A stretch of 31,341 nucleotides of DNA from a virus. The notes below the pieces were generated by a model, which did not search any database, was not told where the DNA came from, and saw only the letters and a program-made list of their open reading frames with translations. Position 1 is the first letter of the stretch; every line of letters starts with the position of its first letter. The translations under genes and the position numbers were made by a program. Shown here piece after piece: positions 6,779-17,815 of this stretch. The DNA lies in IMG/VR virus record IMGVR_UViG_3300044225_001647, positions 1 through 31,341 of that record, one strand, 5' to 3'.

Positions 6779-6944
6779 ACGAGTACCCAAAGATAAAGAA
6801 ACCAAGATACCTAAAAAATATCTTGCTGGTTTAAAGGGTGCAAAACGAAGGGCTAGGGCTAGTTTAATTAAACAGGTGAGTGCTTTATATCGTGCTGGTT
6901 TAAGAATACCTAGAGCCTTATTACAGCGAAGGAACAGGTCATAA
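6753..6944 (+). CDS. Small very basic protein (TTG start)
   Basis: A 63-aa Lys/Arg-rich protein (MAKKKRKVRRVPKDKETK, then IPKKYLAGLKGAKRRARASL, ending LLQRRNRS). It starts at TTG 6753 inside the portal 3' end, with AAGG at 6741-6744; no ATG exists in frame. It is the first of a run of basic proteins between portal and MuF. The 'KKYLAGLKG..R..R...I' stretch resembles small marine-phage proteins of unknown function. The charge suggests packaged-DNA or RNA binding. The next gene overlaps its stop by one base (TAATG). Confidence 0.68.
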   Translation: MAKKKRKVRRVPKDKETKIPKKYLAGLKGAKRRARASLIKQVSALYRAGLRIPRALLQRRNRS

Positions 6945-7207
6945 TGGCAGTAAGAAGAAAACCTTTATCAGCAAAAGTAGTTGCAACATTAAAGGCAAAA
7001 GCAAAAAAATCTAAATTATTTAATTTAACCGATTTAAAAAGAAGTTATAGAAAAGGGCAAGGTGCTTTTTTAAGTGCTGGAAGCAGACCTAGAATTCCTA
7101 TGTCGGCTTGGGCTATGGCAAGGGTAAACAAACTAATTAAACTGGGTAGAAGGGCAACATTTGATAAAGAGATTATTCGTTCTGCTACCAAAAGGAAAAA
7201 GAAATAA
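6944..7207 (+). CDS. DUF5824-like small basic protein
   Basis: An 87-aa basic protein matching my memory of DUF5824: TLKAKAKKS, DLKRSYRKGQGAFLSAGSRP, then SAWAMARVNKLIKLG. The family signature is 'LK..Y..G.GA....GSRP......WAM.RVN.F'. DUF5824 proteins are common in marine phages near portal and capsid genes, with no proven function; virion association is likely. The start ATG overlaps the previous stop (TAATG). The C-terminus is a bare Lys/Arg tail (TKRKKK). The family name is from memory and should be confirmed. Confidence 0.75.
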   Translation: MAVRRKPLSAKVVATLKAKAKKSKLFNLTDLKRSYRKGQGAFLSAGSRPRIPMSAWAMARVNKLIKLGRRATFDKEIIRSATKRKKK

Positions 7208-7209
7208 GT

Positions 7210-7350
7210 TTGGTTAAACTTTGTATTAGGTGCAAGGTTGCTTTGAAGGAAGTGATTAAAAAGGTTTGGAAATGTCCAATCTGTAAAACAATTATTAACG
7301 ATAGGTTAAAAAATGGCGAAGTATCGGGGCAAGGAAGTCAAACTAAATAA
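7210..7350 (+). CDS. Putative 46-aa zinc-ribbon protein
   Basis: A short reading frame filling the otherwise empty gap after the DUF5824 gene. It encodes MVKLCIRCKVALK, then VWKCPICKTIIND, giving two CxxC knuckles 13 residues apart, the geometry of a treble-clef or zinc-ribbon. It would start at TTG 7210 and overlap the next gene by 38 bases. The ribosome-binding site is weak (AAGG at 7192-7195 is too far), so expression is unproven. The well-formed four-Cys pattern is the main argument that it is real. Confidence 0.45.
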   Translation: MVKLCIRCKVALKEVIKKVWKCPICKTIINDRLKNGEVSGQGSQTK

Positions 7351-7600
7351 ACCTTTTAGATTGTCAGCAGATGAATCTAAAAATAAAAAGTTTGGTGTTT
7401 ATGTCAGAAATAAGGCAACAGGCAAGATTAAGAAAGTTACTTATGGTGCAAGGGGTATGTCGATTAAAAAGAATATACCAGCAAGGCAGAAATCTTTTTT
7501 GGCTAGAATGGGCGGAGTTTTAAAAAAGGTTAAAGGTCAAAAGTCTTTATCCCCCGCATTTTGGTCTATAAGGGCATGGAAAAAAAGTTCCACATTATAA
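7313..7600 (+). CDS. Small basic capsid-associated-type protein
   Basis: A 95-aa basic protein with a recognisable module: VYVRNKATGKIKKVTYGARG, MSIKKNIPARQKSFLARMGG, then SPAFWSIRAWKKSS. The usual phage version reads 'FG...M.IkK..PARRKSFRARH.C......K...YWSCR.W' and is found in cyanophage and other marine-phage head genes. Here the His and both Cys of that motif are replaced (ARMGG, FWSIRAW), so any metal site is gone. It is followed four bases later by the MuF gene. The role is unknown; the location suggests head assembly or a virion component. Confidence 0.7.
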   Translation: MAKYRGKEVKLNKPFRLSADESKNKKFGVYVRNKATGKIKKVTYGARGMSIKKNIPARQKSFLARMGGVLKKVKGQKSLSPAFWSIRAWKKSSTL

Positions 7601-7603
7601 TTC

Positions 7604-9601
7604 ATGTCAAAAATTTTAGAAAAACTAGCAGACCAGCATGAAGAAAGAATAATCAATGTTTTATATAAACTTGAAGAAGATGTTGTCAAAGAAGTTACAA
7701 GAGCAACAAAAGGGCAACTGGTTTCACAAAGATTAGCTATTCAATTACGACCAGCTATAAAAAAACTAATTGATGAAAGTTTTTTAGATGAAGCAGACAC
7801 AATTATAAATCGAGAATACAACAAAATAGCAAAAGAAGTTTTAGATAGATTTGGTGAAATGCCAATCCCAAGTAAATTCAAAAGCCTTACAGAAGTTGAC
7901 CTTAGAACTATAAATGCCCTTAAATATCAATCATTTAGCGGATTTGAGGACATTGCAGAAAGATTTCTCAAAGTAATTAATGATGAAGTTTATCAAAGTA
8001 CAATAGCTGGTAGACCTTTTGAAGATATGGTCAGCAATATTAGGTCACATATTAATGGGGTTTATAAATCGTCAAATAGTGCAGAAATAAATGAACTGGT
8101 AGATTTTATAAATGAAAACAAATTTGATAATGCAAAGAAAGCACAGGTAGAAGAAGCGGTCAGAAAGTTACACACACAATATGCAAGTGATAGGGCTGGA
8201 AACAATTTAAGAAGGTATGCAAGTCAGATAGCCCATGATTCTGTAATGCAGTTTCACGGACAATTCACAGTTGCAAAAGCAAAAGAAGCTGGGCTTACTC
8301 ATTTTACCTACACAGGCACTTTAGTTCGAGATAGTAGAGAATTTTGTGTTGGTATGCTTAACAGGACACTCACAGAAGAACAAATACGAGAAATGTGGAA
8401 CAGAAGGTCTTGGCAAGGTAAATCAACTGGTGACCCTTTTATTGTAAGGGGTGGTTATAGATGCAGACATACTTGGCTACCAACAGACCCAGCATGGGGC
8501 GAAGAAGCAGATGAAGTACCCGAAGAAACACCAGTACAACCGACAACACCCCCGCCAGTTGTTGACGAAACAGACATATTTCAACCTATCAATCGTGAAG
8601 GTGTTACAGAACAAACAATTAAAATAGTTTCTGCAAATGAAGCTACAAAAAGACTAAATAAAATATTTAATGATGCTAGTAAAGATGATAGGTATTTAAA
8701 TAAAAATAAAGTTCATTATTCAAGACAAAAAGTTTCAGACTTTGGAACTATAGCGGGTTCAAAATTAGATGACGATAGTTTATCTATGATATTGGCTTTG
8801 ATGCCCGAAGCAGAACAATTATGTAAAAAATTTAATGTGCCTATGATAAGAGGAATTAGAGGTTCAAAAAATGAGCGTTCTTTTTTAGCTAATATGGGCG
8901 ATGGAACAATGGGTATACAAGTTCAATTTGCAAAAAGAACTTCTAAAAATATTGGAAGCAAATCTGTAAGGGAAGCTAGAAGCAAAAAAATTGAACAACA
9001 ACTAGATAAACTTTTAGATGAAGAAGTAGTTTTAGTAAAGCAATTAGAAAAAATTTATAAAGAAGTTGGGGCTGAAACCTATTATGAATTTAGAAGAAGC
9101 ACAGGCATAACTTTAGTTCAACTAAGAGCAGTACAACAATTATTGAAAAAGAAAACTAAAGTTAAAGACAAATATAATGAACTTAATAAATTATCAACTA
9201 CATCACTACATACCGAAAAATCTAATTGGAAAAGAGGTGATAATTTAAAAGATAGACCTTTTTCAGCTAAAGCATTTGAAGATAATAATTTAGACCAGTT
9301 TAGAGCCACATTTTACCATGAAATAGGACATCATGTTCATCAGCAATACAAAATTAAAGATATTAGGGTAAGCCCCGCTAGTGGGCTTGAACCCGAATGG
9401 ACACAAGTTGAAAGACCATTAGAAAAAAGACTAAATAAAGTTAAAAACATTAAAGAACACAGCCCATCGGGTTATGGAACAACTAATACTAAAGAATGGT
9501 TTGTTGAAAACTTTTCACTTTATTATAGGGGCAAAGAAGATTTAGTAGCCCCCGAATTTTTGAAATTACTACAGGAAATAAAAGATGACAAAATCCCTTG
9601 A
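7604..9601 (+). CDS. MuF head-morphogenesis protein fused to zincin domain
   Basis: A 665-aa two-part protein. Residues about 1-300 are a MuF/SPP1-gp7-like minor capsid protein: RRYASQIAHDSVMQFHGQF, then FTYTGTLVRDSREFC and finally RGGYRCRHTWLPTDP. A Pro/Thr-rich linker (about 300-325) leads to a C-terminal domain with FYHEIGHHVHQQ (H572, E573, H576) and, about 60 residues on, KEWFVENFSLYY (E635), the pattern of a gluzincin metalloprotease. MuF proteins carrying C-terminal toxins are known polymorphic effectors of phages; the zincin could be such a cargo delivered with DNA, or could process head proteins, since no separate prohead protease is seen. Its 3' end overlaps a 62-aa gene. Confidence 0.88.
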   Translation: MSKILEKLADQHEERIINVLYKLEEDVVKEVTRATKGQLVSQRLAIQLRPAIKKLIDESFLDEADTIINREYNKIAKEVLDRFGEMPIPSKFKSLTEVDLRTINALKYQSFSGFEDIAERFLKVINDEVYQSTIAGRPFEDMVSNIRSHINGVYKSSNSAEINELVDFINENKFDNAKKAQVEEAVRKLHTQYASDRAGNNLRRYASQIAHDSVMQFHGQFTVAKAKEAGLTHFTYTGTLVRDSREFCVGMLNRTLTEEQIREMWNRRSWQGKSTGDPFIVRGGYRCRHTWLPTDPAWGEEADEVPEETPVQPTTPPPVVDETDIFQPINREGVTEQTIKIVSANEATKRLNKIFNDASKDDRYLNKNKVHYSRQKVSDFGTIAGSKLDDDSLSMILALMPEAEQLCKKFNVPMIRGIRGSKNERSFLANMGDGTMGIQVQFAKRTSKNIGSKSVREARSKKIEQQLDKLLDEEVVLVKQLEKIYKEVGAETYYEFRRSTGITLVQLRAVQQLLKKKTKVKDKYNELNKLSTTSLHTEKSNWKRGDNLKDRPFSAKAFEDNNLDQFRATFYHEIGHHVHQQYKIKDIRVSPASGLEPEWTQVERPLEKRLNKVKNIKEHSPSGYGTTNTKEWFVENFSLYYRGKEDLVAPEFLKLLQEIKDDKIP

Positions 9602-9773
9602 AAAAATAATAGAAATTTTACAAGAAAAAGGCGAAAATCTTTCTAAAGAAGATATTGCACAAATTAGAGAATTGTATGTGGATTTAAGTTTGAAAGAGAA
9701 TACAATCATCAATGATATCGAAGAAATAATATCACAAATTGAAATAACACCGAAAGAAGATGTAAAGATTTGA
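9585..9773 (+). CDS. Small acidic helical protein after MuF-zincin
   Basis: A 62-aa acidic, helical protein (KSLEKIIEILQEKGENL, IAQIRELYVDLSLKEN, ISQIEITPKEDVKI). Its ATG lies 17 bases inside the MuF gene with AGGA at 9572-9575, so it is translated in step with it. No family recognised. Because small acidic proteins coded directly behind polymorphic toxins are often their immunity partners, this is a candidate inhibitor of the zincin domain, but it could equally be a capsid-assembly helper. The stop is followed by a promoter-like sequence. Confidence 0.6.
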   Translation: MTKSLEKIIEILQEKGENLSKEDIAQIRELYVDLSLKENTIINDIEEIISQIEITPKEDVKI

Positions 9774-9818: not shown

Positions 9819-10532
9819 ATGTCAGAAGAAAATAAAGTAGAACAAACAGAAGAACAGGAACAGGTTACACAGCCCGAAGTTACTGAAGAAAAGCCAAAAG
9901 AAAGAATGTTTACAGAAGCAGAAATGCAAGAGATTGTCACGAACAGAATGGCTAGAGATAGAAGTGCCTTGAATAAAAGGTTAGGTGTAAAAGATTTTGA
10001 AGAAGCTGTGTTAGCTGTTAAGCAACAAAAAGAAGCCGAAGAAAAACAAAAAATTCAAAAAGGCGAGTTTGAAGAAATCATAAAAAACAAAACTCAAGAG
10101 TTTAACAGGGAAAAAGAAGAATTACAAAACCAATTAAGAGATATAAAGATTAATAAAGCATTGTTATCGTCTGCTTCAAAAGGCAGAGCAATAAACCCCG
10201 ACCAAGTGGTTTCACTTTTACAAAACCAAATCAAATTAAATGAAAGTGGAAATGTTGAAATACTTGATTCAAAAGGTTTACCAAGATATAACAATAATGG
10301 GGAACTCTTTACAACTGATGAACTGGTTCAAGAGTTTTTGACACAGAACCCGCACTTTGTATCTGCAACCCCTAGCGGTAGTGGCACAAGGTCAAATGTG
10401 GACAGACAAGAACTCAAATCGTCTTTTAAACTTGAGGATTTAGATTTTAGTAACAAAGAGCATAGAGATATGTATCGCAAATATAAAGCGGAAAGAGATT
10501 CTAAGCCTAGAGTTATTAATATGAACAAATAA
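9819..10532 (+). CDS. Capsid scaffolding protein
   Basis: A 237-aa, strongly acidic and helical protein immediately before the major capsid gene. The N-terminus is Glu/Gln/Pro-rich (EQTEEQEQVTQPEVTEEKP), followed by MFTEAEMQEIVTNRMARDR, a long coiled coil (about 60-115), and a C-terminal region with NPDQVVSLLQNQIKL and FLTQNPHFVSATPSGSG. This is the typical plan of GP20/DUF4355-like scaffolds that guide prohead assembly and leave before packaging. GGAGG six bases before the ATG gives a strong ribosome-binding site. No protease motif is present. Confidence 0.85.
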   Translation: MSEENKVEQTEEQEQVTQPEVTEEKPKERMFTEAEMQEIVTNRMARDRSALNKRLGVKDFEEAVLAVKQQKEAEEKQKIQKGEFEEIIKNKTQEFNREKEELQNQLRDIKINKALLSSASKGRAINPDQVVSLLQNQIKLNESGNVEILDSKGLPRYNNNGELFTTDELVQEFLTQNPHFVSATPSGSGTRSNVDRQELKSSFKLEDLDFSNKEHRDMYRKYKAERDSKPRVINMNK

Positions 10533-16812: not shown

Positions 16813-17378
16813 TGGCTAGAGGTCTATCAAGTGCAGTAAAAACAGAATTAGCAACGGGGAATATTGACCCTGTTTTGTTAATTGAACTTGGTTTTTCTAC
16901 ACCAGTATATTTAACAAATGCTAGTTTTGATGTTGTCTCTAGTATTTCGGGTTCGTCAAGAACATATTCAGCAAATGGACATTTGAGAAATATTACAACT
17001 GTAAGCGAAACAAACAATCCAACAAAAAATTCTTTGATTGTAAGTTTATCGGGTGTTGACCAAACTTATATAGCTGGTGCATTAAATGAAAATATTATAA
17101 ATGATAATGTTTATGTGTATAGAGGGTTTTTTGATACAAATTTTTCTCTAATAGCAGACCCTTTTTTATTATTTTATGGCACAATAGATAGTTTTAAAAT
17201 TAGTGATAACACACAAAAAGCAACATTAAATCTTACAGCAACATCACATTGGGGAAACTTTTCAAAAACAAATGGAAGAACAACAACTGATAATTCACAA
17301 CAAAGATTTTTCAGCGGTGATAAAGGTATGGAATTTTCTGCATTAACTGTTCGTGATATTAAGTGGGGCAGATTATGA
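16812..17378 (+). CDS. Minor tail protein, DUF2163-like
   Basis: A 188-aa protein starting at GTG 16812, overlapping the preceding TAG. It reads MARGLSSAVKTELATGNIDP, VLLIELGFSTPVYLTNA, then ITTVSETNNPTKNSLIVSLS and FYGTIDSFKISDNTQKATLN, ending in IKWGRL. The arrangement 'v..el.tG...p..l.e..f' with a later 'G.i...ki.d....a.l...' resembles DUF2163 tail-tip proteins of gene transfer agents and lambda gpL-like proteins. It builds the tail tip between the distal tail protein and the J-like protein. A lambda gpL-type iron-sulphur Cys set is not present. Confidence 0.75.
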   Translation: MARGLSSAVKTELATGNIDPVLLIELGFSTPVYLTNASFDVVSSISGSSRTYSANGHLRNITTVSETNNPTKNSLIVSLSGVDQTYIAGALNENIINDNVYVYRGFFDTNFSLIADPFLLFYGTIDSFKISDNTQKATLNLTATSHWGNFSKTNGRTTTDNSQQRFFSGDKGMEFSALTVRDIKWGRL

Positions 17379-17815
17379 GTATACATTTATACAATGCAGA
17401 AAAAAAAGATATTCAAATTGTTTGCGATTTACTTAAAACATTTAAAGATGAAGATTTACAAAATTTAGATTATCCCGAAGTTGATGATAAAAAATTAGAA
17501 AATTTTATAAATGTTATGTTGGTAAAGGGAAAAGTAATTCTTCTAAAAGATTTAGATTTAGATGATATTTTAGGTTGTGCAATTTTCAATAAAACAGAAT
17601 ATTGGTTTAGTAAAAGTGAATGTATTCATATACATACAATTTACATTAAAAAGAATTACAGAAATTTTAAATTAGTCACAGCTTTATTTGAATCTATAAA
17701 AAAAGTTTCTGATAATTTGCCGATGTATTTACCTGTAACAAGCGGTTTAAATATTGACCCAGTATTTAATAAATTAGGTTTTAAAAACTTAGGTTCAAAT
17801 TGGAGATATAATTAA
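17375..17815 (+). CDS. GNAT-like acetyltransferase in tail-tip cluster
   Basis: A 146-aa protein starting at ATG 17375 (ATGA overlap with the upstream stop; the GTG 12 bases earlier is less likely). The GNAT pattern is visible: an N-terminal strand-helix (HLYNAEKKDIQIVCDLLKTF), DILGCAIFNKTEYWF, the central IHIHTIYIKKNYRNFKLVTA (strand beta4 plus the acetyl-CoA loop region) and NKLGFKNLGSNWRYN at the end. The usual R/Q-x-x-G-x-G/A loop is degenerate (YRNFKLV), so activity is uncertain. It stands where tail-tip NlpC/P60 peptidases normally occur, directly before the J-like protein. Confidence 0.72.
   Translation: MSIHLYNAEKKDIQIVCDLLKTFKDEDLQNLDYPEVDDKKLENFINVMLVKGKVILLKDLDLDDILGCAIFNKTEYWFSKSECIHIHTIYIKKNYRNFKLVTALFESIKKVSDNLPMYLPVTSGLNIDPVFNKLGFKNLGSNWRYN

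What the first reader, a model, noticed from the sequence alone, without database searches (positions are those of the whole stretch)
7604..9601. MuF capsid protein fused to a zincin metalloprotease-like domain
Seen: a MuF N-terminal part and a C-terminal HExxH (HEIGHH, H572/E573/H576) with a downstream E635 in WFVENF, spaced like a gluzincin. Known: MuF proteins with C-terminal toxins form a family of polymorphic effectors in (mostly temperate) phages. Inference: the zincin is injected or delivered with the genome as an effector, or matures the head, since no separate prohead protease is visible. Either is unusual for a small marine phage with no sign of lysogeny.
Basis: partly seen in the sequence, partly recalled or inferred. 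Interest (0 to 1): 0.75.

Follow-up and report, generated by a model that had tools for sequence, protein, structure and literature searches.

The report
Swappable phage metalloprotease with antidote gene
A small phage that probably infects the ocean bacterium SAR11 carries on one of its head proteins an exchangeable protein-cutting enzyme, always followed by a tiny partner gene that looks like its antidote, which suggests that a phage with no sign of lysogeny packs a protein weapon into its particles.

Summary
In detail: window 7604-9601 encodes 665 aa with HEIGHH at 572-577 and a downstream Glu helix. The C-terminal domain models very well (pLDDT 96.3, pTM 0.92), and its profile finds the lethal-factor-like zincin fold. 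Two Glu are invariant, E631 and E635; mapping onto lethal factor favours E631 (with Y624), not E635, as zinc ligand.

The same MuF-like head protein occurs with zincin A, with an unrelated zincin B, or with no cargo. Zincin genes carry a downstream small ORF (59/59 in the first set); MuF-only genes never do (0/20 and 0/169). A-linked and B-linked small ORFs form two separate families. Small-ORF divergence follows the zincin (rho 0.84-0.88), not the MuF domain or scaffold (0.05-0.18). A near-identical phage (MCP 98%, portal 99%) lacks exactly this cassette, so the zincin is not needed to mature the head.

Best reading: a virion-borne zincin effector with a cognate immunity-like inhibitor, a MuF polymorphic-toxin module in apparently virulent SAR11 phages, where such toxins were reported absent. 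Delivery, proteolysis and inhibition are untested.

The parts
7604..8503 (+). MuF-like minor head domain, residues 1-300, constant between cargo types
   Evidence: 83-99% identical in 80 relatives with different C-termini; profile match to canonical MuF proteins E=3.8e-5; lies between portal and scaffold genes
8504..8578 (+). Proline-rich linker, residues 301-325 (VPEETPVQPTTPPPV...)
   Evidence: sequence; proline-rich linkers also in the type B relatives
8579..9598 (+). Type A zincin domain, residues 326-665
   Evidence: AlphaFold2 pLDDT 96.3, pTM 0.92; profile finds lethal factor catalytic domain and a zinc metallohydrolase in PDB
8960..9196 (+). Helical hairpin insertion in the zincin, about residues 453-531, absent from the A2 subtype
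   Evidence: alignment and model helices 128-162 and 179-206
9317..9331 (+). HExxH, H572-H576
   Evidence: H572, E573 and H576 invariant in 57 sequences
9473..9475 (+). Y624, candidate catalytic tyrosine
   Evidence: invariant; maps on Tyr728 of lethal factor
9494..9496 (+). E631, most likely third zinc ligand
   Evidence: invariant; maps on Glu735 of lethal factor
9506..9508 (+).
   Evidence: invariant; one helical turn after E631
9573..9576 (+). AGGA, candidate ribosome-binding site of the small ORF, 8 nt before its ATG
   Evidence: sequence read
9585..9773 (+). 62-aa acidic small ORF, candidate cognate inhibitor (immunity protein), overlapping the zincin gene by 17 nt
8499..9773 (+). Exchangeable cassette: linker, zincin and small ORF; absent as a unit from L037
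   Evidence: blastn breakpoints 8498 and 9763 against L037; MuF-side breakpoint 8506 and scaffold-side 9768 against type B locus L032
5345..6778 (+). Portal protein (context)
   Evidence: SPP1_portal E=1.5e-9, phrog_145 E=2e-55
9819..10532 (+). Scaffolding protein (context)
   Evidence: phrog_206 E=1e-12

Best explanation
The gene is a modular virion effector. The MuF-like N-terminal domain docks the protein at the portal inside the head (inferred from family and position). The C-terminal lethal-factor-like zincin is the cargo and enters the next SAR11-type cell with the DNA, where it cuts an unknown protein (inferred). The overlapping 62-aa ORF is translated together with it and binds and blocks the zincin in the producing cell (inferred); it would stay behind when the genome is ejected, so only the new cell meets an active protease. 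Shown here: the domain anatomy, a conserved predicted active site, cargo exchange and loss on a constant MuF domain, the nearly obligatory and type-specific small partner ORF, and the lack of recognisable integration genes.
For: Conserved active-site residues and a confident zincin-like model. Constant MuF domain with cargo A, B or none, plus rarer further cargo types (L339, L459, L406). Small ORF after 59/59 zincin genes and 0/20 MuF-only genes, repeated with 0/169 MuF-only genes. A-linked and B-linked small ORFs form two separate profile families with no crossing. Small ORF co-varies with the zincin, not with MuF or the adjacent scaffold. dN/dS about 0.2 in the window-L008 comparison shows a real gene. 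Cassette cleanly absent from L037. Known MuF toxins have the same toxin-immunity gene order, with Bsi blocking Bxa (PMC11699363; PMC5576092).
Against: No direct evidence for packaging, ejection, proteolysis or inhibition. MuF membership of the window protein is only profile-level. Two of 86 A-linked small ORFs and one of 43 B-linked ones are not recruited by the family profiles, and one type A gene (L140) showed no small ORF. A lytic phage has less obvious need of immunity than a prophage.
Confidence: 0.68

Rival explanations
1. The zincin is a head maturation (prohead) protease that cleaves scaffold or capsid protein during assembly.
For: Fused to a head protein beside scaffold and MCP, and no other prohead protease was recognised in the ORFs scanned. 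A weak PHROG hit is named head maturation protease.
Against: L037, with 97% identical scaffold and 98% identical MCP, lacks the zincin; 20 complete MuF-only loci and three complete cultured genomes do too, with no type A or B zincin elsewhere. A head protease would not be expected to be swapped for an unrelated zincin or to need a type-specific small partner.
Confidence: 0.04
2. The zincin is a self-processing domain: it cuts its own proline-rich linker to release itself or to finish MuF maturation, with no other target.
For: Zincin domains of polyvalent proteins are proposed to process their own polypeptides (PMC5512222); the linker is rich in prolines.
Against: MuF-only phages do without it. 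Pure self-processing does not explain two unrelated zincins, each with its own small partner family. Self-release could still be one step of effector delivery.
Confidence: 0.1
3. The small ORF is not an inhibitor but a dedicated chaperone or packaging partner of the zincin cargo; the zincin is still a delivered effector.
For: Small, acidic, overlapping and specific for its zincin type, as would be expected of effector chaperones too.
Against: Small ORFs next to characterised MuF toxins neutralise the toxin (PMC11699363). The MuF domain would already provide head targeting.
Confidence: 0.15

Closest known systems
MuF polymorphic toxins (Jamet et al. 2017, PMC5576092; Bxa and Apk2, PMC11699363)
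   Same: Constant MuF-type head domain, variable C-terminal enzyme, small ORF directly downstream; 20% of the described MuF toxins have a metallopeptidase domain
   Different: Here in phages without recognisable integration genes, whereas the survey found no MuF toxin domain in virulent phages; two zincin families with two separate partner families and natural cargo-free sister phages
Polyvalent proteins with zincin-like metallopeptidase domains (PMC5512222)
   Same: Zincin joined to a virion protein and thought to act around invasion; profile link to lethal factor is also reported there
   Different: Only two domains here; cargo is swapped as a cassette with a small partner ORF, which the passages read do not describe for polyvalent proteins
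Lethal-factor-like zincins (Pfam ATLF PF07737; Tox-ALF metallopeptidase of PMC3482391)
   Same: HExxH, downstream Glu helix, matching Tyr position; profile hit to the solved catalytic domain E=9e-5
   Different: Below the Pfam cut-off; different insertions; the toxin survey lists this domain with other delivery systems and with Imm-SuFu as immunity protein
SPP1 gp7-type MuF minor head proteins
   Same: Minor head protein gene directly in the portal-MuF-scaffold-MCP block
   Different: SPP1 gp7 harbours no toxin domain (PMC5576092)

Membership tests
MuF polymorphic toxins | N-terminal MuF domain | tested here: inconclusive
   No PF04233 hit for the window protein; profile match to canonical MuF proteins with probability 71%, E=3.8e-5 over 64 columns; the 43% identical relative L216 has a sub-threshold Phage_min_cap2 hit. 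The same zincin cassette does sit on canonical Phage_Mu_F proteins.
MuF polymorphic toxins | Variable C-terminal domain on a conserved N-terminus | tested here: met
   Zincin A, zincin B or none on 83-99% identical MuF domains; further types L339, L459, L406
MuF polymorphic toxins | Small ORF directly downstream, only when a toxin domain is present | tested here: met
   59/59 against 0/20, repeated with 0/169
MuF polymorphic toxins | Carried by temperate phages | tested here: not met
   No tyrosine or serine recombinase in the window, seven near relatives and five cultured pelagiphages; some distant carriers are temperate
MuF polymorphic toxins | C-terminal domain is toxic and neutralised by the small ORF | not testable with these tools
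   needs expression experiments
Lethal-factor-like zincins (ATLF/M34) | Active-site HExxH, Tyr and Glu in the family spacing | tested here: met
   H572, E573, H576, Y624 and E631 invariant; spacing consistent with lethal factor
Lethal-factor-like zincins (ATLF/M34) | Pfam ATLF gathering score | tested here: not met
   16.4 bits against 27.4
Prohead maturation protease | Needed for head assembly, hence conserved with the capsid genes | tested here: not met
   Absent from L037 and from complete relatives HTVC202P, HTVC111P and HTVC112P
Polyvalent proteins | Multidomain polypeptide (2 to 15 domains) of a mobile element combining effector and virion domains | tested here: met
   Two domains, the lower limit of the definition

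The most novel reading that the evidence does not exclude
The cassette is a phage-against-phage weapon in virulent SAR11 phages: a superinfecting virion brings a zincin that harms the resident infection unless the resident makes the matching small protein. This would explain why zincin types and their partners are exchanged or lost on otherwise near-identical phages.
Probability: 0.18. Interest if true: 0.9.

Novelty: new variant of a known kind. Interest (0 to 1): 0.68.

Why it matters
MuF toxins were described as exclusive to temperate phages and tied to lysogeny. Here an equivalent module, with unusually clean evidence for cognate pairing, lies in phages of very abundant marine bacteria that show no sign of lysogeny. 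A cultured carrier (HTVC026P) and cargo-free cultured relatives (HTVC111P, HTVC112P, HTVC202P) exist, so delivery, inhibition and fitness effect can be tested directly. The small partner proteins are also candidate natural inhibitors of lethal-factor-like zincins.

Tried and rejected
Single-sequence phmmer of the whole protein against PDB: no hit. Foldseek of the zincin A model against PDB: no match at E<=0.001, the list being mostly helical and coiled-coil proteins, probably drawn by the hairpin insertion; the profile search worked instead. Foldseek of the zincin B model against PDB: no match at E<=0.001; the top rows are lethal factor and Certhrax at E 0.3-0.8, treated as weak. Pfam hits MCM4_WHD and GeBP-like on the MuF part were dismissed as below cut-off. 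The stop after MuF in the cargo-free loci was considered as possible recoding and rejected, because the scaffold gene follows directly. Five loci with a B-like zincin first counted as carrying A-type small ORFs; their scores are borderline and three of the five match only the A profile (E 0.003-0.005), so I read them as a further subtype with its own partner rather than as proof of a mismatch, but this is not settled. Pfam scan of the small ORFs gave nothing above cut-off.

Full report
OBSERVATION. The frame 7604-9601 (+) encodes 665 aa with HEIGH at 572 and E635 in WFVENF. Neighbours are TerL 4137, SPP1-type portal 5345, two small basic proteins, this gene, scaffold 9819 and MCP 10561. In 57 relatives of the C-terminal domain H572, E573, H576, H579, Y624, E631, F633 and E635 never vary. 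AlphaFold2 on that alignment gave pLDDT 96.3 and pTM 0.92 for residues 326-665, with HExxH in one helix and E631/E635 in a following conserved helix. Coordinates were not returned, so the site geometry was not measured.

WHICH GLUTAMATE. A profile of the alignment finds a zinc metallohydrolase lipoprotein (E=1.3e-6) and the lethal factor catalytic domain (E=9.2e-5 and 0.003) in PDB. In the profile H572 is position 243, Y624 291, E631 298 and E635 302. If H572 aligns with His686 and the aligned end is ungapped, the distances in lethal factor from His686 to Tyr728 (42) and to Glu735 (49) put Y624 on Tyr728 and E631 on Glu735. The roles of His686, His690, Tyr728 and Glu735 are from PMC3496994. 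E631 is therefore the likelier ligand; this is an inference from residue spacing, not a structure. Pfam ATLF and Peptidase_Mx1 hits stay below their cut-offs, so this is a relative by profile, not a filed member.

THREE STATES OF ONE GENE. Eighty relatives from viral contigs share the MuF part at 83-99% identity but differ behind residue 300. In 46 the zincin is type A, in 13 it is an unrelated zincin B (HEYGHH plus an invariant downstream Glu; model pLDDT 94.2), and 20 complete genes stop at about 300 aa with the scaffold gene right behind (one further locus is cut). Profile comparison of A and B aligns only the HExxH stretch. Type A also sits on canonical Phage_Mu_F proteins of other phages, including cultured pelagiphage Kolga gp59 (PF04233 E=4e-15), and on a third N-terminal type of about 750-900 aa.

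THE MISSED PARTNER. A 62-aa ORF (9585-9773) overlaps the zincin gene by 17 nt and has AGGA 8 nt before its ATG. Such a small ORF follows 46/46 A and 13/13 B genes and 0/20 MuF-only genes. In three later scans seeded on other MuF domains it follows the complete A (19) and B or B-like (20) genes and 0/169 MuF-only genes; in the wider zincin A scan one gene, L140, showed none. Profiles made from A-linked small ORFs recruit 84/86 of their kind and none of 43 B-linked ones; B profiles recruit 42/43 and none of 86. In sets of 30 and 38 type A genes, small-ORF distance correlates with zincin distance (rho 0.84 and 0.88), not with MuF (0.18 and 0.05) or with the scaffold next to it (0.13 and 0.15); MuF and scaffold correlate with each other (0.61 and 0.36). 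dN/dS of the small ORF is about 0.2 in the window-L008 comparison and below 1 in the other informative comparisons; in that pair zincin and small-ORF dN (0.22, 0.24) are about three times that of MuF (0.08). The pair is thus a real two-gene unit that moves between phage backbones.

NATURAL DELETION. L037 matches the window at 93-95% DNA identity on both sides (portal 99%, scaffold 97%, MCP 98% protein identity) but lacks the stretch from about 8499 to 9763-9773. It and other MuF-only records, including the complete genomes of HTVC202P, HTVC111P and HTVC112P, hold no type A or B zincin elsewhere (metagenome contigs may be fragments). A head maturation role is therefore very unlikely.

PHAGE GROUP AND LIFESTYLE. 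The nearest cultured phages by MCP are HTVC112P, HTVC026P, HTVC202P and HTVC111P (65-70%), all isolated on Pelagibacter, so a SAR11 host is inferred, not shown. No tyrosine or serine recombinase was found in the window, seven near relatives or five cultured pelagiphages. Three distant carriers have an integrase (G014, G016, G021) and Sphingobium genomes carry the MuF-zincin-small ORF set. The module therefore spans temperate and apparently virulent phages.

MECHANISM. Shown: anatomy, conserved predicted active site, exchange, co-inheritance, dispensability for the head. [quoted passage not shown] The inhibitor step rests on analogy with MuF toxins, where Bsi blocks Bxa (PMC11699363).

NOVELTY. 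MuF toxins with small downstream ORFs are known, and 20% of the described ones have metallopeptidase domains; virulent phages were reported to have none (PMC5576092). Lethal-factor-like zincins are known toxin domains but were listed with other delivery systems (PMC3482391). The one paper in the library that holds both 'pelagiphage' and 'MuF' mentions each word once. I rate this a new variant of a known kind.

LIMITS. The locus sets are seeded by similarity to chosen proteins and capped at 80, so the counts of A, B and none are not natural frequencies. The MuF assignment of the window protein itself rests on a weak PHROG hit and a profile match plus gene position. All functional steps are untested.

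Noticed in passing
L240 4456-6345 and L459: Two MuF-zincin genes from different sources are followed by a different, cysteine-containing small ORF (pattern C-FC...GTC-AFP-GIP-DI), apparently a third partner family.
   Followed up: partly
L323, L329, L330, L331, L340: Divergent B-like zincins whose small ORFs score only borderline to the A or B small-ORF profiles; probably a further cargo-partner subtype.
   Followed up: partly
L406 (451 aa, cut at the contig end): A window-type MuF domain with a cargo that matches neither zincin profile and shows no HExxH in the part present.
   Followed up: no
window 17363-17815: An acetyltransferase-like gene (phrog_1249) lies among the tail genes; HTVC026P has a gene annotated toxin-activating lysine-acyltransferase just before its tail protein gene in the same region.
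   Followed up: no
window 6944-7207 and 7313-7600: Two small basic proteins between portal and MuF, one with a weak PHROG hit to a minor head protein and DNA pilot family; possible packaged proteins.
   Followed up: no
L101, L107, L116, L120, L128: Zincin A with its partner ORF on a third N-terminal type of about 750-900 aa; one of these proteins (L120) had no Pfam or PHROG match at all.
   Followed up: no
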